Positions 23,785 to 29,005 of a stretch of 64,000 nucleotides of DNA are shown here, piece by piece. The position numbers and the translations under genes were made by a program. The stretch spans positions 496,001 through 560,000 of the forward strand of contig JANSYA010000001.1 of NCBI GenBank assembly GCA_024742665.1, given 5' to 3'. Source of the DNA: a bacterium. GTDB taxonomy: Bacteria > Spirochaetota > Leptospiria > Leptospirales > Leptonemataceae. Every line of letters begins with the position of its first letter. The stretch's first letter is position 1. The notes under the pieces were generated by a model. That model was not told the DNA's origin, searched no databases, and saw only the letters and a list, made by a program, of their open reading frames with translations.

Positions 23785-23901
23785 TTAACGGCATGTGCCT
23801 TCCGGATCTATCAGCCGCAGATCCTGTCCGCAGCGCGAACACGGTACCGGTGATTTTAATACCGGAGAATATCCAGAGCGCGGCCAGTGATACTCAGACA
23901 C
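23785..23901 (-). pseudogene. Truncated copy of the zinc-ribbon/RHH gene inside the left inverted repeat
   Basis: GTG at 23901 opens a 38-codon frame nearly identical to the first part of the gene at 28670, including SPVPCSRCGQDLRLI, then ends at TAA after EGTCR. It lacks a 21-bp segment and all sequence beyond the first CxxC. Homology to the right copy stops at 23797, in a GGAAGGC microhomology. Downstream in the same frame an unrelated 33-codon tail (GLLPDPVLLVETNREL) continues to about 23685, perhaps the rest of another broken gene. Confidence 0.7.
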
Positions 23902-24145
23902 GCCAACCCCCTTTTCTCACCTGGGACGCAAGCGCAGCGCCCCTTCTGGCTTCGACTGCGAAAAGGGTCGAGTAAGTCGAAAACGTTATTCTACAAATTT
24001 CCAGAAGGCACATGCCGTTAATGATGTTAATACTTCGCTTCGCAAGATCAACTCCAAAAACATTTCGCACAAAAATTTCGCTTCCAAATCGGATTCGGAT
24101 ATATTAACATGTTTTTATTCTCAATTAAGATTCGGAGGCGGCAGG
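23797..24145. repeat. Left inverted repeat (IR-L) flanking the tRNA array
   Basis: The 349 bp match 28426-28795 in reverse complement at roughly 85-90% identity by eye; the only length difference is 21 bp absent here. The inner end is exactly the T-stem 3' strand plus acceptor (CCTGC-CGCCTCC) of tRNA-Ser(TGA). The outer end is inside the truncated zinc-ribbon gene. A second, shorter inverted motif (CATTAACGGCATGTGCCTTC) occurs at 23783-23803 and, inverted, at 24001-24025 within the same arm. Confidence 0.88.
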
Positions 24146-24234
24146 ACCCCGCAGCCTTTCAGGCTGCATGGCCTGCAACGGTGATCCCGTGACCTATTTT
24201 CAAAATAAGCTCCTCATTCAGCCGGATCGCCTCC
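24133..24234 (-). tRNA. tRNA-Ser(TGA) with T-loop hairpin
   Basis: Acceptor GGAGGCG/CGCCTCC, anticodon stem CTTAT/ATAGG with loop TTTGAAA, long variable arm, discriminator G as expected for Ser. The T stem GCAGG/CCTGC is intact but the usual 7-base TTCRANY loop is replaced by 26 bases holding a GCAGCC/GGCTGC hairpin (24146-24171). Last tRNA of the left arm; its 3' end is shared with the inverted repeat. Confidence 0.8.
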
Positions 24235-24245
24235 CTTTAATCATA

Positions 24246-24318
24246 TGGGGACGGTGAGATTCGAACTCACACTGTACACGTTCTGAGCGTGCTGCCTCTG
24301 CCGTTGGGCTACGTCCCC
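24246..24318 (-). tRNA. tRNA-Leu(CAG), short variable arm
   Basis: Acceptor GGGGACG/CGTCCCC, anticodon loop CTCAGAA in stem GCACG/CGTGT, variable region only five bases (ACAGT), normal T arm GTGAG-TTCGAAT-CTCAC, discriminator A. Bacterial tRNA-Leu normally has a long (class II) variable arm, so this class I form is unusual. Confidence 0.8.
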
Positions 24319-24324
24319 GTTTTT

Positions 24325-24418
24325 TGCGCCGGACAAGATCATGGCAGCCCAAAGGGCTGCCTTGCTTGCACTAACCAGGCTCTCGACCTGGTGCCTCTGC
24401 CTATTGGGCTACCGGCGC
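24325..24418 (-). tRNA. tRNA-Leu(GAG), class I, with T-loop hairpin
   Basis: Acceptor GCGCCGG/CCGGCGC, anticodon stem CCAGG/CCTGG with loop TCGAGAG (C rather than U at position 33), variable TTAGT. T stem GCAAG/CTTGT encloses a 27-base loop with GGCAGCCC/GGGCTGCC instead of TTCRANY. Discriminator A. D arm is almost the same as in the neighbouring CAG and TAA tRNAs. Confidence 0.75.
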
Positions 24419-24422
24419 TTTT

Positions 24423-24514
24423 TCGAGCGGGCGGGACCCAGTGGCCTGAAAGGCCACACGGCCCGCAACACACAGGGCTTAAACCTGCTGTCTCTGCCGT
24501 TGGACTACCGCCCG
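24423..24514 (-). tRNA. tRNA-Leu(TAA), class I, with T-loop hairpin
   Basis: Acceptor CGGGCGG/CCGCTCG (one G-U), anticodon loop TTTAAGC in stem GCAGG/CCTGT, variable GTGTT. T stem GCGGG/CCCGC with a 26-base loop containing GTGGCC/GGCCAC. Discriminator A. Confidence 0.77.
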
Positions 24515-24519
24515 TATTT

Positions 24520-24604
24520 CGGAGTAGGGAGGGATCGAACCTCCGCGTCTGTTACAACGACCTCGACTTAGCAGGTCGGTGCCTTACCTCTCGGCCACTA
24601 CTCC
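24520..24604 (-). tRNA. tRNA-Ser(GCT)
   Basis: Acceptor GGAGTAG/CTACTCC, anticodon loop CTGCTAA, class II variable arm, canonical T arm GGAGG-TTCGATC-CCTCC, discriminator G. This is the only Ser tRNA of the array without an inserted hairpin. Confidence 0.92.
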
Positions 24605-24608
24605 AATT

Positions 24609-24754
24609 CGGAAGGAGAAGGATTCGAACCCTCTGTTGCGCAATAAGGCGCAACAGAGCAGGACATCACCTGCCAGTGGCAGGTGATGTGTCGCGCATCT
24701 GTTACGATGACCACCGGTTTCCAACCGGATACCTTACCACTCAGTCATCCTTCC
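24609..24754 (-). tRNA. tRNA-Ser(GGA) with two hairpins between variable and T arms
   Basis: Acceptor GGAAGGA/TCCTTCC, anticodon loop TTGGAAA, variable arm GGTCATCGTAACAGATGC, then two long perfect hairpins (ACATCACCTGCC/GGCAGGTGATGT and CTCTGTTGCGC/GCGCAACAGAG) before GAGGG-TTCGAAT-CCTTC. The T loop itself is normal. Total 146 bases, about 60 more than the ordinary tRNA-Ser(GGA) at 29419. Confidence 0.75.
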
Positions 24755-24761
24755 AATCTTA

Positions 24762-24907
24762 CGGATGGAGCAGGAATCGAACCCTCAGTTGCGCTATTAG
24801 GCGTAACTGAGCATTGCATGACGTGCCATCGGGCACGTCATGCGGTGGCGGCTTGTATGCCGGCTTTCGTTTTCGAAACGAACCCCTTACCACTCGGGCA
24901 TCCATCC
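24762..24907 (-). tRNA. tRNA-Ser(CGA) with two hairpins between variable and T arms
   Basis: Acceptor GGATGGA/TCCATCC, anticodon stem TTCGT/ACGAA with loop TTCGAAA, class II variable arm GCCGGC-ATACAA-GCCGCC. Insert hairpins are GCATGACGTGCC/GGCACGTCATGC and CTCAGTTACGC/GCGCAACTGAG. T arm GAGGG-TTCGATT-CCTGC has one A-G mismatch. Discriminator G. Same architecture as the Ser(GGA) unit, different stem sequence. Confidence 0.73.
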
Positions 24908-24933
24908 AATTCAAAGGGCGCACTTCGCCCATG

Positions 24934-25043
24934 TGCGCCGCCGAGGATTTGAACCTCTCGTCTCCCAACCCTCTCGTTTAATGACTGAAGCAGGAAGCTT
25001 TGCTTCCTGCGCAATTTACAGTCCGGCAGAGGGAAAGCGGCGC
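24934..25043 (-). tRNA. tRNA-Tyr(GTA)-like RNA with rod-like middle
   Basis: Acceptor GCGCCGC/GCGGCGC and a T arm with loop TTCAAAT are clear, and a CTGTAAA (Tyr anticodon loop) is present. The middle does not fold as a normal anticodon arm: CCCTCT/AGAGGG, GACTG/CAGTC and GCAGGAAGC/GCTTCCTGC nest into one long rod. Discriminator A fits Tyr, and the leader ahead of this operon contains a Tyr codon. Could be an intron-containing, remodelled or decayed tRNA-Tyr. Confidence 0.5.
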
Positions 25044-25049
25044 GTTTAA

Positions 25050-25087
25050 AAACAAAAAGCCCCTCGCGGATAATCCGGGAGGGGCTT
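25050..25087 (-). terminator. Attenuator terminator before the Tyr-Ser-Leu tRNA operon
   Basis: On the minus strand AAGCCCCTC/GAGGGGCTT (nine-base stem) is followed by TTTTTGTTTTT, a strong Rho-independent terminator, and seven bases later by the first tRNA. Its 5' arm CCCCTCCCG is complementary to CGGGAGG at the end of the leader ORF (25124-25133), so the two helices exclude each other. Confidence 0.85.
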
Positions 25088-25115
25088 CATCGAAACGTTA
25101 AGTTGTTTCAGGGCA

Positions 25116-25184
25116 CTACATCGCCACCTCCCGCATGTTGCTGGAGCTATAAAGTGATAGCGATGATAATAATTTGCCGTTCAT
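25116..25184 (-). CDS. Leader peptide rich in Leu, Ser and Tyr (tRNA-operon attenuator)
   Basis: A 22-codon ORF (start 25184, stop TAG) ahead of the Tyr/Ser/Leu tRNA genes. Residues 5-15 read LLSSLSLYSSS, from codons TTA, TTA, TCA, TCG, CTA, TCA, CTT, TAT, AGC, TCC, AGC; nearly every codon is read by a tRNA in the operon (TAA, TGA, CGA, GAG, GTA, GCT, GGA anticodons). It ends NMREVAM, and the CGG-GAG-GTG codons form the antiterminator strand. The Shine-Dalgarno is weak. A ribosome that reaches the stop would cover this strand and allow termination; stalling at Leu/Ser/Tyr would free it. Confidence 0.75.
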   Translation of the reverse strand: MNGKLLSSLSLYSSSNMREVAM

Positions 25185-25195
25185 GACTGTTGCTT

Positions 25196-25222
25196 TTTGT
25201 ATCAGACGAAATAGAAAGTCAA
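25196..25222 (-). promoter_or_regulatory. Possible promoter of the Tyr-Ser-Leu tRNA operon
   Basis: Minus strand TTGACT then TACAAA with a 15-base spacer, about 12 bases before the leader ATG, in AT-rich DNA. The spacer is short, so confidence is limited. Confidence 0.4.
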
Positions 25223-25333
25223 TAGTTTAAAATTTATTCGCCATAAAAAAGATTTCGTACATTTGCTGGATCTCGCGTTGCTCTTCGCGCGAGCCAATCG
25301 TTTTCCTGAGAATTTCTCTATATACTAAAGCTG

Positions 25334-25404
25334 CTCCGGGAGGTGGATTCGAACCACCGTTAACGGATTCAAAGTCCGCTGTTCTGCCATTGAACTATCC
25401 CGGA
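25334..25404 (-). tRNA. tRNA-Gln(TTG)
   Basis: Acceptor TCCGGGA/TCCCGGA, anticodon loop CTTTGAA in stem GCGGA/TCCGT, canonical T arm GGTGG-TTCGAAT-CCACC, discriminator G as in bacterial Gln. Different in sequence from the other tRNA-Gln(TTG) at 57856, so not a recent duplicate of it. Confidence 0.92.
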
Positions 25405-25411
25405 TGATATT

Positions 25412-25483
25412 CTGGGAAGGCGGGATTCGAACCCGCACCGTGCGCATTAACAGTGCGCCGCCCTGCCGTTGGACCACTTCCCA
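25412..25483 (-). tRNA. tRNA-Asn(GTT)
   Basis: Acceptor TGGGAAG/CTTCCCA, anticodon loop CTGTTAA in stem GCGCA/TGCGC, canonical T arm GCGGG-TTCGAAT-CCCGC, discriminator G. Confidence 0.93.
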
Positions 25484-25487
25484 ATAT

Positions 25488-25581
25488 CAGAGGGGGCAGG
25501 ACCCAGCAGCCTTTCAGGCTGCATGGCCCGCGAACACCAGATTTGGAGTCTGGTAGCTTCGACCTCTCGACTCACCCCTCT
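25488..25581 (-). tRNA. tRNA-Trp(CCA) with T-loop hairpin
   Basis: Acceptor AGAGGGG/CCCCTCT, anticodon stem CCAGA/TCTGG with loop CTCCAAA, discriminator G. T stem GCGGG/CCTGC encloses a 26-base loop with GCAGCC/GGCTGC, the same hairpin as in the Ser(TGA) unit. Confidence 0.8.
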
Positions 25582-25586
25582 ATGAT

Positions 25587-25677
25587 TCGGCGCAGTGGGA
25601 TCCAGTGGCCCTTTGGGCCACACGGCCCACGACCCCCTGCTCCCGAAGCAGGCGCTCTCCCACTGAGCTATACGCCG
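25587..25677 (-). tRNA. tRNA-Pro(CGG) with T-loop hairpin
   Basis: Acceptor CGGCGTA/TGCGCCG, anticodon stem CCTGC/GCAGG with loop TTCGGGA, discriminator A. T stem GTGGG/CCCAC with a 26-base loop holding GTGGCCC/GGGCCAC. The loop differs from that of tRNA-Lys(TTT) at 26940 by one base although the two genes lie on opposite strands. Confidence 0.8.
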
Positions 25678-25685
25678 GAATATGC

Positions 25686-25723
25686 ACAAAAAAACCCCCT
25701 CAAGCATTCGCCGGAGGGGGTTT
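25686..25723 (-). terminator. Attenuator terminator before the Pro-Trp-Asn-Gln tRNA operon
   Basis: Minus strand AAACCCCCTC/GAGGGGGTTT stem followed by TTTTTTT, ten bases before tRNA-Pro. Its 5' arm CCCCCTCC can pair instead with GGAGGTGG at the end of the leader ORF (25761-25768). Confidence 0.86.
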
Positions 25724-25752: not shown

Positions 25753-25830
25753 TTACACGACCACCTCCCGCGAATTACCGGAGTTTAAATTATTCTGTGG
25801 CCAAGAACTCTGTAGCGAATATCGAATCAT
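25753..25830 (-). CDS. Leader peptide rich in Trp, Pro, Gln and Asn (tRNA-operon attenuator)
   Basis: A 25-codon ORF (start 25830, stop TAA) ahead of tRNA-Pro, -Trp, -Asn and -Gln. Its middle reads LQSSWPQNNLNSGN; eight residues are Gln, Trp, Pro or Asn, and the single Trp-Pro-Gln-Asn-Asn run is hard to explain otherwise. It ends SREVVV; compare REVAM in the other minus-strand leader. CGG-GAG-GTG codons again form the antiterminator. A good promoter lies 19-47 bases upstream, leaving a very short untranslated leader without a clear Shine-Dalgarno. Confidence 0.75.
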   Translation of the reverse strand: MIRYSLQSSWPQNNLNSGNSREVVV

Positions 25831-25877: not shown

Positions 25878-26062
25878 CCCTTTAAACAGAAAAATTTAGA
25901 TAATCAATAAAAATTAGCAAATTAACTCAGATTGTTTCGTCTAAACTCCTTGTTGGATATCCCCATACAAAGGTGAGTAAGAGAATCGATCGCCCGAAAT
26001 GCAGCGTTGGTTTTGCGCGCTGATGACCGGCAGAGCTCTTCATTATACAGAAGAGTTGTTCT

Positions 26063-26119
26063 TTGACTCGACGAATCATCCAGAGCGAAGGGAGTCCGAT
26101 ACGCGAGGTGCTCCGATGA
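26063..26119 (+). CDS. Possible leader ORF of the first plus-strand attenuator
   Basis: An 18-codon frame from a TTG at 26063 to TGA at 26117-26119 ends PIREVLR, resembling the REVVV and REVAM ends of the minus-strand leaders, and CGAGG there can pair with CCTCG in the terminator at 26146. The start codon is uncertain: the same TTGACT could be a -35 box. A longer overlapping frame (25999-26218) also runs through the terminator. It is followed by another promoter and leader, not by a tRNA, so it may be a spare or decayed unit. Confidence 0.3.
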   Translation: MTRRIIQSEGSPIREVLR

Positions 26120-26145
26120 CGGAACGACAAGATTGTATACGCACA

Positions 26146-26184
26146 GATACGGCCTCGGCGAAATTCGGGGCCGTATCGTTTTTT
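26146..26184 (+). terminator. Rho-independent terminator, first plus-strand attenuator
   Basis: GATACGGCC/GGCCGTATC perfect nine-base stem followed by GTTTTTT. Lies before the P2 promoter region. Confidence 0.85.
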
Positions 26185-26212
26185 CTAAAAAAGAATACTG
26201 ATTTTGTATTAT

Positions 26213-26242
26213 TTTATTGACTATTATAGCCGAGTATATAAT
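26213..26242 (+). promoter_or_regulatory. Promoter-like region before the second plus-strand leader
   Basis: A perfect TATAAT (26237-26242) lies 13 bases before the leader ATG at 26255. A -35 match is either TTGACT with 14-base spacing or TTTATT with 18-base spacing. Confidence 0.45.
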
Positions 26243-26254
26243 CAGAGAAAAGAC

Positions 26255-26359
26255 ATGCAAATCAACGGCATACATAGACTTGATCTGGCCAAGAAGGCCC
26301 CAGAGATGCAGCATAACTGTGAGCGTATTGCGTTTACAGGGAGGCCGTATTCGCCTTAG
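26255..26359 (+). CDS. Leader peptide before tRNA-Glu, broad amino-acid content
   Basis: A 34-codon ORF just after a TATAAT box, ending GRPYSP-TAG 27 bases before a terminator. It samples 18 amino acids, including Cys and two Glu, and contains the run HNCERIAFTG. The GGG-AGG-CCG codons (26339-26347) can pair with GGCCTC in the 5' arm of the terminator at 26386. It fits an attenuator that monitors many tRNAs at once, upstream of tRNA-Glu and the rest of the right arm. No good Shine-Dalgarno; near-leaderless translation would be needed. Confidence 0.6.
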   Translation: MQINGIHRLDLAKKAPEMQHNCERIAFTGRPYSP

Positions 26360-26385: not shown

Positions 26386-26416
26386 AAAAGGCGGGCCTCT
26401 AAGGTTCGCCTTTTTT
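26386..26416 (+). terminator. Attenuator terminator before tRNA-Glu
   Basis: AAAAGGCG-GGCC/GGTT-CGCCTTTT stem running into T6. Its GGCCTC segment is complementary to GAGGCC in the leader ORF that ends at 26359. Confidence 0.8.
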
Positions 26417-26454: not shown

Positions 26455-26471
26455 GGAGGTATCGAAAGATG
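26455..26471 (+). other. Strong Shine-Dalgarno and start codon before tRNA-Glu
   Basis: GAGGAGG nine bases before an ATG at 26469 opens a frame (MNRNRSIYLSAGAMPRER) that runs through tRNA-Glu and is in frame with the leader at 26691. It lies after the terminator, so it is translated only on read-through. Whether it makes a protein is unclear. Confidence 0.4.
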
Positions 26472-26556
26472 AATCGCAATAGAAGTATATATTTATCCGC
26501 CGGTGCTATGCCCCGAGAGCGGGAACTCAGTAGTCATTTTACAAATTTTATAACAA

Positions 26557-26628
26557 GCCGGCGTCGTCTAACGGTCAGGACGCCACACTTTCACTGTGGA
26601 AGCCGGGGTTCGACTCCCCGCGTCGGCA
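26557..26628 (+). tRNA. tRNA-Glu(TTC)
   Basis: Acceptor GCCGGCG/CGTCGGC, anticodon loop CTTTCAC in stem CCACA/TGTGG, canonical T arm CGGGG-TTCGACT-CCCCG. Lies between two attenuators; Glu is absent from the downstream leader, as expected if that leader reports only on tRNAs after it. Confidence 0.93.
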
Positions 26629-26690
26629 GAGATGCGCCCTTAAGGTCTATATTTACAGGTATTATAAACTCGGAAACGAAAAGAACACCC

Positions 26691-26807
26691 ATGAACGCGA
26701 TGCGAAGAACAACATCCGTGATAACCACGGCCGCCCATTTTGGAGCGAAGCATATCGATGCAGGGCATAAGTTTGTCCGCTTCGTCCGGGGAGATTCTAT
26801 TACATAA
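26691..26807 (+). CDS. Leader peptide matching the Lys-to-Ile tRNA operon (attenuator)
   Basis: A 38-codon ORF (ATG 26691, TAA 26805). Apart from one Asn and two Ser it uses only Ala, Met, Arg, Thr, Val, Ile, His, Phe, Gly, Lys and Asp, exactly the 11 amino acids of the assigned tRNAs downstream (Lys, Phe, Gly, Thr, fMet, Val, Ala, Arg, Asp, Ile, Arg, His, Ile). It includes AGA and ATA codons, matched by the Arg(TCT) and Ile(TAT) tRNAs. Near its end CCGGGGAG (26786-26793) pairs over eight bases with CTCCCTGG in the terminator. The frame is also open upstream through tRNA-Glu. Confidence 0.68.
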   Translation: MNAMRRTTSVITTAAHFGAKHIDAGHKFVRFVRGDSIT

Positions 26808-26838
26808 CACTGATTTAATTTCAGACAGATGTAATTGG

Positions 26839-26872
26839 AACCCTCCCTGGCAAACGCTGCGGAGGGTTTTTT
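26839..26872 (+). terminator. Attenuator terminator before the large right-arm tRNA operon
   Basis: AACCCTCC/GGAGGGTT stem with CTGGCAAACGCTGC loop and T6 tail. CTCCCTGG on its 5' side is complementary (one G-U) to CCGGGGAG in the preceding leader ORF. Confidence 0.85.
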
Positions 26873-26939: not shown

Positions 26940-27030
26940 GGGTCCGGAGCTCGGAGGTTGAGCATCCGACTTTTAATCGGGTGGCCGTGGGCCGTGTGGC
27001 CCAAAGGGCCACTGGGTCCCACCGGACCCA
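26940..27030 (+). tRNA. tRNA-Lys(TTT) with T-loop hairpin
   Basis: Acceptor GGGTCCG/CGGACCC, anticodon stem TCCGA/TCGGG with loop CTTTTAA, discriminator A. T stem GTGGG/CCCAC encloses 26 bases with a GTGGCCC/GGGCCAC hairpin in place of TTCRANY. Confidence 0.82.
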
Positions 27031-27053
27031 AATCATAAACCAAGGAGGTTCGC

Positions 27054-27125
27054 ATGAGCGAAAGTGATTTTGGAAACTGCATTTATTATCGTCGGAGAGC
27101 AAGTGTGGTCATTGCGCTGGTCTGA
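27054..27125 (+). CDS. Mini-ORF running into tRNA-Phe
   Basis: AAGGAGG with five-base spacing precedes ATG of a 23-codon frame (MSESDFGNCIYYRRR...) that ends inside tRNA-Phe. Its N-terminus shares an ESD motif with the mini-ORF before tRNA-Lys. Overlap with the tRNA argues for a regulatory rather than a protein-coding role. Confidence 0.35.
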   Translation: MSESDFGNCIYYRRRASVVIALV

Positions 27126-27162
27126 AAAACCAGAGAACCCGGTTCGATCCCGGGTCCGACGA
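27090..27162 (+). tRNA. tRNA-Phe(GAA)
   Basis: Acceptor CGTCGGA/TCCGACG, anticodon loop CTGAAAA in stem CTGGT/ACCAG, canonical T arm CCCGG-TTCGATC-CCGGG, discriminator A. Confidence 0.93.
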
Positions 27163-27166
27163 ATTC

Positions 27167-27238
27167 GCATTAGTAATGTAACGGATAACATTCCTGGCTT
27201 CCAACCAGGCCATCAGGGTTCGAATCCCTGCTAATGCA
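27167..27238 (+). tRNA. tRNA-Gly(TCC)
   Basis: Acceptor GCATTAG/CTAATGC, anticodon loop CTTCCAA in stem CCTGG/CCAGG, canonical T arm CAGGG-TTCGAAT-CCCTG. Confidence 0.93.
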
Positions 27239-27243
27239 AAAAC

Positions 27244-27552
27244 GGGCACGTAGTGTAGAGGAAACACACCCCTAAAAACGTTAGCAGGGGTTCCCCAAAA
27301 GGGAGGTGTAGGCGAAGCGGAACGGTTAAAGCACCGCGAAAGCGAGGCGAACCCTTTGGGTGTTTCCGTGAAGCTAAGCGAATGGGAAGGTTTGAGGATG
27401 CATCTGACAGCAGCCTGCGAAAGCGGGTGGGATAAGTGCGGGAGAAGCGCGTTTTCCAAACCCATTGTTGCATCTACGCAGCTCTGCACAGGATGTGCAG
27501 AGGTTAGCGCTGGCCATGGATGGCCAGGCGCAACCGAATCCTGTCGTGTCCA
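27244..27552 (+). ncRNA. Large tRNA-like RNA with about 210-base insertion (Cys slot?)
   Basis: Acceptor GGGCACG/CGTGTCC and D arm GTGT-AGAGGAA-ACAC are tRNA-like, and the 3' end has CGAATCCTGT before the acceptor. The T region carries two hairpins (CTCTGCAC/GTGCAGAG and GCGCTGGCCA/TGGCCAGGCGC). The anticodon region is replaced by a structured insert: CCCC/GGGG near its start, CGGAAC/GTTTCCG, GNRA-capped hairpins CGC-GAAA-GCG and CCTGC-GAAA-GCGGG, and a possible pseudoknot (AATGGG/CCCATT with GATGCA/TGCATC). Group I intron core motifs are not clear. Cys is the only amino acid without a tRNA in the array, so it may fill that slot, though the A discriminator does not favour it. Confidence 0.45.
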
Positions 27553-27556
27553 AAAC

Positions 27557-27631
27557 GCCCCGGTAGCTCCAACTGGAAGAGCACCGTTTTCGTAATTCGG
27601 AGGTTGCAGGTTCGAATCCGTGCACGGGGCA
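27557..27631 (+). tRNA. tRNA-Thr(CGT), degenerate stems
   Basis: Acceptor GCCCCGG/ACGGGGC (one G-A), anticodon loop TTCGTAA, T loop TTCGAAT. The anticodon stem CCGTT/TTCGG has two T-T mismatches next to the loop and the T stem needs a bulged G. Either decayed or deliberately weakened. Confidence 0.65.
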
Positions 27632-27637
27632 AAACAA

Positions 27638-27710
27638 TGCGATGTAGCGCAGCGGTAGCGTGCCGGGCTCATAACCCAGGAAGTCGGAGGTTCGAATCCT
27701 TCCATCGCAA
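27638..27710 (+). tRNA. tRNA-fMet(CAT), initiator-like
   Basis: Acceptor TGCGATG/CATCGCA with a weak T-A first pair, anticodon stem with the three consecutive G-C pairs (GGG-CTCATAA-CCC) typical of initiators, T arm GGAGG-TTCGAAT-CCTTC, discriminator A. Confidence 0.85.
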
Positions 27711-27713
27711 CAT

Positions 27714-27787
27714 ACGAGTTTAGTTCAGCTGGTTAGAACGCCTGTCTTACAAACAGGAGGCCGTTGGTTCAAATCCAACAACTCGTA
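27714..27787 (+). tRNA. tRNA-Val(TAC)
   Basis: Acceptor ACGAGTT/AACTCGT, anticodon loop CTTACAA in stem CCTGT/ACAGG, T arm GTTGG-TTCAAAT-CCAAC, discriminator A. Confidence 0.94.
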
Positions 27788-27790
27788 CAT

Positions 27791-27864
27791 GGGGACGTAG
27801 CTCAGATGGCAAGAGCGTCTGTTTTGCAAGCAGAAGGCCGTCGGTTCGAAGCCGACCGTCTCCA
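27791..27864 (+). tRNA. tRNA-Ala(TGC)
   Basis: Acceptor GGGGACG/CGTCTCC with the G3-U70 pair that specifies alanine, anticodon loop TTTGCAA in stem TCTGT/GCAGA, canonical T arm. Confidence 0.94.
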
Positions 27865-27869
27865 CATTT

Positions 27870-27962
27870 AGGGCTCTGGCTCAACGGATTAGAGCGCCTG
27901 CCTACGAAGCAGGAGATTACGGGCCGTGGTGGCCGAAGGCCACCTGGTTCCCGTGAGCCCTT
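27870..27962 (+). tRNA. tRNA-Arg(ACG) with T-loop hairpin
   Basis: Acceptor AGGGCTC/GAGCCCT, anticodon loop CTACGAA in stem CCTGC/GCAGG. T stem ACGGG/CCCGT with a 26-base loop holding GGTGGCC/GGCCACC. An ACG anticodon would need A34-to-I editing to read CGC/CGA. Confidence 0.8.
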
Positions 27963-27966
27963 TAAA

Positions 27967-28037
27967 GTCGCGTTAATTTAATGGTAGAATGCCTGATTGT
28001 CTCTCAGGCAGCAGGGGTTCGATTCCCCTACGCGGAG
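27967..28037 (+). tRNA. tRNA-Asp(GTC)
   Basis: Acceptor GTCGCGT/ACGCGGA (first pair G-A mismatched), anticodon loop TTGTCTC in stem CCTGA/TCAGG, T arm AGGGG-TTCGATT-CCCCT, discriminator G. Confidence 0.88.
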
Positions 28038-28040
28038 AAA

Positions 28041-28155
28041 CGAAGCGTAGTTTAACGGTTTAGAACTCCGGTCTGATATACCGGCAGTGGTGGCCCGGTG
28101 TCCCGATGGACACCGGGGTTGCGCCTCCGGGCGCGACCGTTTCCATCCGCTTCGA
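28041..28155 (+). tRNA. tRNA-Ile(GAT) with double-hairpin T loop
   Basis: Acceptor CGAAGCG/CGCTTCG, anticodon loop CTGATAT in stem CCGGT/ACCGG, discriminator A. T stem GGTGG/CCATC encloses 49 bases with two hairpins, CCCGGTGTCC/GGACACCGGG and GCGCC/GGCGC, and no TTCRANY. Confidence 0.77.
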
Positions 28156-28157
28156 AT

Positions 28158-28231
28158 ATCCCGGTAGCTTAACTGGATAAAGCGCTGTGTTTCTAACTAC
28201 GTGATTCGGGGTTCGAATCCTCGCCGGGATG
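28158..28231 (+). tRNA. tRNA-Arg(TCT), mispaired anticodon stem
   Basis: Acceptor ATCCCGG/CCGGGAT, anticodon loop TTTCTAA and canonical T arm CGGGG-TTCGAAT-CCTCG. The anticodon stem CTGTG/CTACG keeps only the two end pairs, which would normally prevent function. Confidence 0.7.
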
Positions 28232-28237
28232 TGATGA

Positions 28238-28309
28238 TAGGGGTTGGTGTATCTGGTAACATTCGGAATTGTGTCTTCCGAGCGGTGGGTTCGAGTCCCT
28301 CACCCCTGA
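28238..28309 (+). tRNA. tRNA-His(GTG)
   Basis: Acceptor TAGGGGT/ACCCCTG (one T-G), anticodon loop TTGTGTC in stem CGGAA/TTCCG, T arm GTGGG-TTCGAGT-CCCTC with one mismatch. The template base at -1 is A, so G-1 would have to be added after transcription. Confidence 0.86.
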
Positions 28310-28313
28310 CCAT

Positions 28314-28390
28314 CGGCGTATAGCTCAGTTGGTGAGGAGCGGCGACCTTATAAGTCGTGTCAGTCGCGGGTTCAAGTCCCGCTACGCCGA
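28314..28390 (+). tRNA. tRNA-Ile(TAT)
   Basis: Acceptor CGGCGTA/TACGCCG, anticodon loop CTTATAA in stem GCGAC/GTCGT, seven-base variable region, T arm GCGGG-TTCAAGT-CCCGC, discriminator A. It reads ATA, which bacteria more often read with lysidine-modified CAT. Confidence 0.88.
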
Positions 28391-28425
28391 CAATTCACTT
28401 GAGGACTTCGCAATACTCTTCGAGC

Positions 28426-28795
28426 CCTGCCGCCTCCGAATCTTAATTGAGAATAAAAACATGTTAATATATCCGATTCTTATTTGAAAGCGAATTTTTT
28501 GTGCGAGATATTTTTGGAGTTGATCTTGCGAAACGATGCATTAACATCATGAACGACATGTGCCTTCTGGAAATTTGCAGATTTACGTTTTCGACTTACT
28601 CGACCCTTTTCGCAGTCGAAGCCAGAAGGGGCGCTGCGCCTGCGGCCCAGGTGAGACAAGGGGGTTGGCGTGTCTGAGTATCACTGGCCGGGCTCTGGAT
28701 ATTCTCCGGTATTAAAATCCACGGTGGCGAAAAGCGAATCACCGGTGCCGTGTTCGCGCTGCGGACAGGATCTGCGGCTGATTGGTCCGGAAGGC
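28426..28795. repeat. Right inverted repeat (IR-R) flanking the tRNA array
   Basis: Reverse-complement partner of 23797-24145. It starts with CCTGC-CGCCTCC, the orphan 3' end of a tRNA-Ser(TGA), and runs into the intact zinc-ribbon/RHH gene at 28670. A tRNA 3' end at the repeat edge is typical of integrase attachment sites, but no integrase gene is present in the window. Confidence 0.88.
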
Positions 28796-29005
28796 TGCAC
28801 AATCTGCGCTTCTGAAATAGCTCAGTTGCGATCATTCAAGGTTCAGGTGCCGCTGCTGACCCTCGAAATCATCAAGGCGAAACACAAAAACGTCTCCGCC
28901 TATCTTCGCGGCCTGATCGCGAAAGATCTTGGGCCAGACGTTTTTCCGTTAACGGCTCTCCAACGACGCGGCGGCGGAAGATTGAAAGTGAAAACAGATC
29001 TATAG
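28670..29005 (+). CDS. Zinc-ribbon / ribbon-helix-helix-like small protein
   Basis: 111 residues from a GTG with GGGGG upstream. A CSRCGQDL...GCTICASE pair of knuckles suggests a zinc ribbon (about residues 28-48); SFKVQVPLLTLEIIKAKH and VSAYLRGLIAKDLG after it resemble a ribbon-helix-helix DNA-binding fold. Its first 42 codons are duplicated, inverted and truncated at the other edge of the tRNA array. It may be a small DNA-binding regulator tied to the element; that is inference. Confidence 0.6.
   Translation: MSEYHWPGSGYSPVLKSTVAKSESPVPCSRCGQDLRLIGPEGCTICASEIAQLRSFKVQVPLLTLEIIKAKHKNVSAYLRGLIAKDLGPDVFPLTALQRRGGGRLKVKTDL

What the first reader, a model, noticed from the sequence alone, without database searches (positions are those of the whole stretch)
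26691..26872. Third attenuator: leader composition equals the tRNA set of the largest operon
35 of 38 residues belong to exactly the 11 amino acids whose tRNAs follow; nothing from the other operons (Trp, Pro, Gln, Leu, Tyr, Glu, Cys) is used. Rare choices are included (AGA with Arg-TCT, ATA with Ile-TAT). The antiterminator CCGGGGAG/CTCCCTGG pairing is eight bases. A match this complete is very unlikely by chance and supports the whole interpretation.
Basis: partly seen in the sequence, partly recalled or inferred. Interest (0 to 1): 0.95.

Follow-up and report, generated by a model that had tools for sequence, protein, structure and literature searches.

The report
tRNA operons read by matching leaders
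A bacterium carries a second, clustered set of tRNA genes in which three gene groups are each preceded by a short reading frame whose amino acids are strongly biased toward those of the tRNAs that follow, with a predicted RNA on/off switch in between, so each group would likely be turned on when one of its own tRNAs runs short.

Summary
The 38-codon frame at 26691-26807 has 35 residues from the 11 amino acids whose tRNAs follow; of 1,746 short ATG frames from 344 kb of the same genome, 4 reach that fraction and none of them holds all 11. It is not alone: leader B (MNGKLLSSLSLYSSSNMREVAM) precedes a Tyr/Ser/Leu group, and leader A (MIRYSLQSSWPQNNLN...) precedes Pro, Trp, Asn, Gln and then group B. 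Before the point where a ribosome would mask the antiterminator, matches are A 14/16 (own group alone 7/16), B 10/13, C 26/28; null frames reaching them: 0 (20 for 7/16), 0, 0. Four array leaders (A-D) each have a terminator and a complementary segment near the ORF's end, and folding predicts a switch. None of 31 chromosomal tRNA units that I tested has this layout. Leader D, before tRNA-Glu, has the switch but no matched composition. Best reading: trp-type ribosome-mediated attenuation used on tRNA genes, new as far as my paper searches tell, so that loss of any tRNA of a set would switch on its replacement. No expression data exist; no second genome with this array could be read; some tRNAs (Trp, Tyr among them) are called by eye only.

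The parts
26691..26807 (+). leader C ORF, MNAMRRTTSVITTAAHFGAKHIDAGHKFVRFVRGDSIT
   Evidence: 34/37 residues in the set of group C
26786..26793 (+). antiterminator 5' segment CCGGGGAG, inside the end of leader C
   Evidence: pairs with 26843-26850
26839..26868 (+). predicted terminator of leader C (arms 26839-26846 and 26861-26868), T run after it
26940..28391 (+). group C: Lys-TTT, Phe, Gly-TCC, unidentified element 27244-27551, Thr-CGT, Met, Val-TAC, Ala-TGC, Arg-ACG, Asp, Ile-GAT, Arg-TCT, His, Ile-TAT
   Evidence: anticodons of Lys, Thr, Arg-ACG, Ile-GAT and Arg-TCT read by eye
25753..25830 (-). leader A ORF, MIRYSLQSSWPQNNLNSGNSREVVV
   Evidence: codons 2-17: 7/16 in its own group's set, 14/16 in the set of all tRNAs downstream on its strand
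25758..25770 (-). antiterminator segment CGGGAGGTGGTCG of leader A; core shared with leader B
25693..25722 (-). predicted terminator of leader A, ending just before tRNA-Pro
25333..25677 (-). group A: Pro-CGG, Trp-CCA, Asn-GTT, Gln-TTG
   Evidence: Trp called by eye and by its fold only
25116..25184 (-). leader B ORF, MNGKLLSSLSLYSSSNMREVAM
   Evidence: codons 2-14: 10/13 in {Y,S,L}
25122..25133 (-). antiterminator segment CGGGAGGTGGCG of leader B
25058..25086 (-). predicted terminator of leader B
24134..25043 (-). group B: Tyr-GTA, Ser-CGA, Ser-GGA, Ser-GCT, Leu-TAA, Leu-GAG, Leu-CAG, Ser-TGA
   Evidence: Tyr (weakest), Leu-TAA, Leu-GAG and Ser-TGA called by eye only; Ser-CGA anticodon by eye
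26255..26359 (+). leader D ORF, MQINGIHRLDLAKKAPEMQHNCERIAFTGRPYSP; no matched composition
   Evidence: 19/27 in the Glu + C set, 549 of 1542 null ORFs do as well
26386..26414 (+). predicted terminator of leader D
26557..26628 (+). tRNA-Glu-TTC between leader D and leader C

Best explanation
This is a set of tRNA gene groups in which three are preceded by a short leader reading frame whose residues are biased toward the amino acids of the tRNAs that follow, with a predicted terminator/antiterminator switch between, so that each group is likely transcribed only when a ribosome stalls for want of one of those tRNAs. Inferred steps: transcription starts just before the leader ATG; a ribosome follows the polymerase; if every tRNA is available it reaches the stop codon, covers the segment at the ORF's end, and the terminator forms; if any of the set is short it stalls earlier, the segment pairs with the terminator's 5' arm and transcription runs into the tRNA genes. 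Many different codons in one leader make an OR gate over the whole set. Leader A, first on its strand, would cover its own group and group B behind it. Because the products are the very tRNAs whose absence stalls the leader, the loop would correct tRNA loss (for example by tRNA-cutting toxins, colicins or phage-triggered nucleases) rather than amino-acid starvation. Shown directly: ORFs, composition match, complementarity. Predicted: folds. Untested: transcription, stalling, antitermination, trigger, function of the tRNAs.
For: Composition in the predicted sensing zone: A 14/16, B 10/13, C 26/28; null ORFs reaching this 0 of 2087, 0 of 2291, 0 of 1506. With Trp and Tyr (called by eye) left out: A 12/16 (2 of 2087), B 9/13 (0 of 2291). 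Shuffling which amino acid belongs to which group: 1 of 200,000 and 1 of 300,000 (each of two versions) reach the observed total. Leader A has only 2/16 residues of group C's set; 1 of 2087 null ORFs is as low. Switch: before the 3' arm is made, the terminator's 5' arm is held upstream with P 0.71-0.87 for stalls up to codon 17 (A), 14 (B), 29 (C), 28 (D) and 0.02-0.44 beyond; the boundary moves by one codon for footprints of 9 or 15 nt. In B the Ser/Leu/Tyr run (codons 5-15) ends at that boundary. In C the complete RNA also changes fold: P(terminator) is 0.05 or less for most stalls up to codon 27 and 0.88 or more from codon 29. Complementarity of ORF end and 5' arm is as strong in 4, 20, 35, 15 of 2000 single-base shuffles for A, B, C, D. 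A and B share an antiterminator module that matches exactly only there in 6.03 Mb (one other place at 1 mismatch), while their peptides differ. Layout in 4 of 4 array leaders, 0 of 31 chromosomal tRNA units tested. Rare synonymous codons in all four leaders (1, 5, 1, 1 of 5000 draws as low), though the leaders are also lower in GC than the window, so this is confounded.
Against: No expression, Ribo-seq or mutational data. No second genome with the array: of 48 genomes of the class only this one has 58 tRNA hits, the others 9-42, so no conservation test. Leader D fails the composition test although it has the switch. Matching at the anticodon level is partial: 6/16, 9/13, 20/28 for A, B, C. In A, B and D the full-length equilibrium fold stays a terminator at every stall position (P 0.78-0.98); in C it does too, in part, for stalls at codons 11-13 (0.29-0.55), 28 (0.64) and 29 (0.88). 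Leaders B and C lack a clear Shine-Dalgarno, and promoters were read by eye; the consensus scan did not list them. Leader A's match to the union A+B was defined after seeing it; its own-group match is 7/16 (20 of 2087 null ORFs; 43 of 2087 for P, N, Q alone). Trp, Tyr, Leu-TAA, Leu-GAG and Ser-TGA are tRNAs by eye only. C without Lys and Thr is unremarkable (129 of 1506). Many array tRNAs have abnormal T arms and may not work.
Confidence: 0.8

Rival explanations
1. General translation-stress attenuators: any slowed ribosome (antibiotic, starvation) frees the antiterminator, and the peptide composition does not matter.
For: The predicted switch works for a stall at any early codon; leader D has the switch with a mixed composition; the Anabaena array is induced by antibiotics against translation (PMC10272220, abstract and section 9 read).
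Against: Three leaders have set-specific composition that follows the tRNAs behind them. A general sensor would not need this.
Confidence: 0.11
2. Amino-acid starvation attenuators: the leaders sense charging, not tRNA amount, as in the trp and his operons.
For: The same anatomy; uncharged and absent tRNA would both stall the ribosome.
Against: The groups behind the leaders consist of tRNA genes, which would not relieve starvation; the leader sets follow tRNA content, not a pathway.
Confidence: 0.07
3. Coincidence: short spurious ORFs in front of tRNA genes with ordinary terminators.
For: Short ORFs abound (2,291 ATG ORFs of 14-200 codons in 344 kb); ORF and set were chosen after looking; no ortholog to test.
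Against: Null counts of 0 for three leaders and 1 of 200,000-300,000 for the joint shuffle, plus separate RNA-switch evidence and 0 of 31 chromosomal units with the layout.
Confidence: 0.02

Closest known systems
Ribosome-mediated transcription attenuation of amino-acid operons (trp, his type)
   Same: Short leader ORF with regulatory codons ahead of a terminator; codon choice matters (Elf and Ehrenberg, PMC1183508, outline with abstract read). Antiterminator overlapping the ORF's end is recalled.
   Different: Regulated genes are tRNA genes, not biosynthetic enzymes; each leader covers 3 to 11 amino acids instead of one or a few (recalled); the product is the sensed molecule itself.
Anabaena trn operon, 26 tRNA genes, silenced by the RHH repressor TrcR and activated by translation stress (PMC10272220; abstract and section 9 read)
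   Same: A second, clustered, stress-related tRNA set beside the housekeeping genes.
   Different: Control by a repressor at the promoter; in two Nostoc arrays looked at here (not the Anabaena one) no terminator-like site lies between the promoter-like site and the first tRNA.
tRNA array units of mycobacteria and their plasmids and phages (PMC5966550, PMC12803027; start of abstract in a listing and found passages)
   Same: Dense clusters of tRNA genes; a putative antidefence role is named in the abstract of PMC12803027.
   Different: 'attenuat' and 'leader' have 0 occurrences in the main text of either paper.
Phage tRNAs proposed to counter tRNA-depleting defences (PMC10264068, abstract read)
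   Same: Replacement tRNAs against tRNA loss.
   Different: Its abstract speaks of anticodon-loop changes, not of leader-peptide control.
T-box riboswitches (recalled)
   Same: Sense tRNA state and control termination.
   Different: T-boxes bind tRNA directly; none was listed by the Rfam searches of window and array.

Membership tests
Ribosome-mediated transcription attenuator (trp/his type) | short leader ORF with start and stop before the terminator | tested here: met
   4 of 4 array leaders
Ribosome-mediated transcription attenuator (trp/his type) | intrinsic terminator between ORF and first regulated gene | tested here: met
   (sequence prediction); the scan lists the one of D only
Ribosome-mediated transcription attenuator (trp/his type) | mutually exclusive antiterminator using the terminator's 5' arm, masked by a ribosome near the stop codon | tested here: met
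   (prediction); full-length fold switches in C only, partial RNA in all four
Ribosome-mediated transcription attenuator (trp/his type) | regulatory codons related to the regulated genes | tested here: met
   for A, B, C; not met for D
Ribosome-mediated transcription attenuator (trp/his type) | regulated genes make or handle the sensed amino acid | tested here: not met
   genes downstream are tRNAs; hence filed as a variant, not as a plain member
Ribosome-mediated transcription attenuator (trp/his type) | response to ribosome stalling in vivo | not testable with these tools
   needs reporter or RNA-seq
tRNA array unit | high number and density of tRNA genes apart from the housekeeping set | tested here: met
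   26 tRNA genes (5 of them by eye only) plus one unidentified element in about 4.3 kb; housekeeping tRNAs lie elsewhere
T-box riboswitch | match to an Rfam T-box model | tested here: not met
   no such match listed

The most novel reading that the evidence does not exclude
A self-repairing tRNA supply: a near-complete backup tRNA set split into groups, each with a leader peptide that is a bar code of the tRNAs behind it and acts as a many-input OR gate, so that cutting any tRNA in the cell switches on its replacement; the extra hairpins in the T arms of about eight backup tRNAs would be a disguise from the nucleases that removed the originals.
Probability: 0.35. Interest if true: 0.95.

Novelty: new variant of a known kind. 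Interest (0 to 1): 0.88.

Why it matters
Leader-peptide attenuation is known for amino-acid operons (PMC1183508) and for drug-response genes (titles and abstracts listed). Here the regulated genes would be tRNA genes and the peptide would list the tRNAs behind it, so the sequence itself tells which shortage each group answers. It offers a testable reason why some tRNA arrays exist: repair of the tRNA pool on demand. It also gives a search rule (leader composition against downstream anticodons) for other arrays, and a natural many-input sensor of tRNA loss.

Tried and rejected
Upstream start at 26469 with a strong Shine-Dalgarno: rejected as the leader start, since the bias begins near 26691; the open frame through tRNA-Glu stays unexplained. 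Leader D as a Glu or Glu+C sensor: no enrichment. Relatives of the array: window DNA in 61 genomes (the own one included) gave, outside the own array, short matches of about 40-180 bases (54 of 61 genomes have a match, own included), not the array. The T-arm hairpin pattern had 0 matches in viral contigs, 0 in the other 21 genomes of the family, and in genome contigs two matches, both in Pseudonocardia contigs without any tRNA found by ARAGORN, taken as chance. The flanking 111-aa protein has 13 homologues but none could be placed in genome contigs or viral contigs or in the other 21 genomes of the family, so no second array could be read. AAA_13 (PrrC/RloC type, recalled) has no match in the genome at E <= 0.001 and PIN has two: no clear trigger. 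A ribbon-helix-helix identity of the flanking protein was not confirmed: no such match in Pfam or among solved structures, model pLDDT 65.7. Those aimed at leader-peptide control of tRNA operons found 0, 4, 0, 29 (20 listed), 12 and 5 papers; none of the listed ones is about it by title and start of abstract. Only open-access PMC papers are held.

Full report
What was checked. The window is G000:C9:496001-560000 of an unnamed 6.03 Mb genome. Its tRNA cluster lies at 24.1-28.4 kb on both strands. ARAGORN finds 14 of these genes. Rfam adds Pro, Ser-CGA, Ser-GGA, Lys, Thr and Arg-ACG over its cut-off, and Ile-GAT below it. Trp, Tyr, Leu-TAA, Leu-GAG and Ser-TGA I call by eye from acceptor stems and anticodon loops (coordinates; folds; Trp folds well, Tyr badly). 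That gives group A (Pro, Trp, Asn, Gln), group B (Tyr, four Ser, three Leu), a single Glu, and group C (13 tRNAs of 11 amino acids plus one unidentified element): 26 genes. Cys is the one amino acid not seen. Housekeeping tRNAs lie elsewhere, mostly single or in small groups. Of 15 array tRNAs compared with 39 housekeeping ones, none is near-identical.

The finding itself. Leader C is as described: 35 of 38 residues in the 11-amino-acid set. Among 1,746 ATG ORFs of 18-60 codons from 344 kb of this genome (array left out), 4 reach the fraction, 0 of these hold all 11 amino acids, and 0 have its run of 26.

It is one of a family. Leader B contains eleven Ser/Leu/Tyr residues in a row and precedes the Ser/Leu/Tyr group. 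Leader A contains WPQNN and precedes Pro, Trp, Asn, Gln; seven of its other early residues are Ser, Leu and Tyr, the set of group B that lies behind it on the same strand. In the predicted sensing zones the counts are A 7/16 for its own group and 14/16 for all tRNAs downstream, B 10/13, C 26/28. Null ORFs that do as well: 20 of 2087, 0 of 2087, 0 of 2291, 0 of 1506. Reassigning amino acids to groups at random reaches the total once in 200,000 or 300,000 trials. Of the cross matches, only A against B's set is above background (7/16; 76 of 2087 null ORFs); the other five are at or below it. The union for A was chosen after seeing the sequence, which weakens that one number. Without Trp and Tyr, which rest on reading by eye, A is 6/16 (43 of 2087) and 12/16 (2 of 2087), and B 9/13 (0 of 2291). 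C depends on Lys and Thr: without them it is 20/28 (129 of 1506).

The switch. Each leader ORF ends in a segment complementary to the 5' arm of the terminator that follows: CGGGAGGTGG in A and B, CCGGGGAG in C, GGGAGGCC in D (segments picked by eye). Shuffled ORF ends pair as well in 4, 20, 35 and 15 of 2000 cases. I modelled a ribosome that hides RNA up to 12 nt past the A-site codon. Before the 3' arm is made, the 5' arm is held upstream with P 0.71-0.87 for early stalls and falls below one half at codon 18 (A), 15 (B), 30 (C) and 29 (D). Footprints of 9 and 15 nt move this by one codon. In B the Ser/Leu/Tyr run ends there. In C the complete RNA also changes fold for most early stalls, with exceptions at codons 11-13 and 28-29; in A, B and D it does not, so these would depend on the order of folding (inference).

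Controls. The antiterminator module of A and B matches exactly only there in the genome, with one further place at 1 mismatch: shared RNA parts with different peptides. ORF plus terminator in front of the first tRNA: 4 of 4 array leaders, 0 of 31 chromosomal tRNA units tested, 5 of which have a terminator-like site without such an ORF (the tRNA at C8:28530 was not fetched, and second genes of a unit were mostly not tested apart). Of four arrays from other bacteria, two from Nostoc and one from Niallia have no + strand terminator-like site between a promoter-like site and the first tRNA; the Peribacillus array follows what looks like rRNA (by eye) and has such a site just before the first tRNA, overlapped by an ORF inside that rRNA-like stretch. 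A fifth record (Ketogulonicigenium) held only two tRNAs and was not used. Leaders use rare synonymous codons, in line with theory on codon choice in attenuators (PMC1183508 abstract), but they are also less GC-rich than the window.

What does not fit. Leader D has promoter-like sequence, ORF and switch but an ordinary composition (19/27; 549 of 1542 null ORFs reach it); it may be a general sensor. Codon-level fit is partial: 6/16, 9/13, 20/28. B and C have weak ribosome-binding sites; short 5' leaders are inferred from promoter-like sequences read by eye and not listed by the scan. Many array tRNAs have extra hairpins, so whether they function is open.

Mechanism and novelty. The best reading is ribosome-mediated attenuation of tRNA gene groups, sensing the tRNAs that follow. 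I place it as a new variant of a known kind: it works like a trp-type attenuator, but the regulated genes and the many-codon sensor are new as far as six paper searches aimed at this tell. That tRNA loss, as in the tRNA-depleting defences named in PMC10264068 (abstract), is the trigger is my inference. The array is known only from this genome: of 48 genomes in the class the others have 9-42 tRNA hits against 58 here.

Noticed in passing
24134-25677 (-) and 26940-28153 (+): About eight array tRNAs (Pro, Trp, Lys, Arg-ACG, Ile-GAT, Leu-TAA, Leu-GAG, Ser-TGA) lack the usual T loop and have a long hairpin there, in several CCRTGYRGCC-N5-GGCYRCTGGRT; Tyr, Ser-CGA and Ser-GGA carry extra hairpins in the variable region (fold; clearest in Trp, Lys, Arg-ACG, Leu-GAG, Ser-TGA). 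A related pattern matches the own genome at 4 places, all in the array, and 0 of 21 other genomes of the family.
   Followed up: partly
23797-24145 and 28426-28795: Inverted repeat (arms of 300 and 59 bases, 93-95%) bounds the array; it holds the start of a 111-aa gene (28670-29005) at one end and a truncated copy at the other. The protein has a C-x2-C ... C-x2-C motif and a C-terminal part that looks to me like a ribbon-helix-helix DNA binder (unconfirmed); TrcR of Anabaena is RHH too.
   Followed up: partly
27244-27551: About 310 bases bounded by complementary tRNA-like acceptor halves (GGGCACG/CGTGTCC) inside group C: a tRNA with a very large insert, or something else; no Rfam match listed there.
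   Followed up: partly
26469-26807: Open frame with a strong Shine-Dalgarno runs without stop through tRNA-Glu and into leader C in the same frame.
   Followed up: partly
26146-26177: Terminator-like site on the + strand (13 pairs) upstream of leader D; ORF 25999-26220 runs across it; its role is unclear.
   Followed up: no
27638-27711: The array tRNA-Met has three G-C pairs at the end of the anticodon stem (initiator-like, recalled) but a paired first base; by eye.
   Followed up: no
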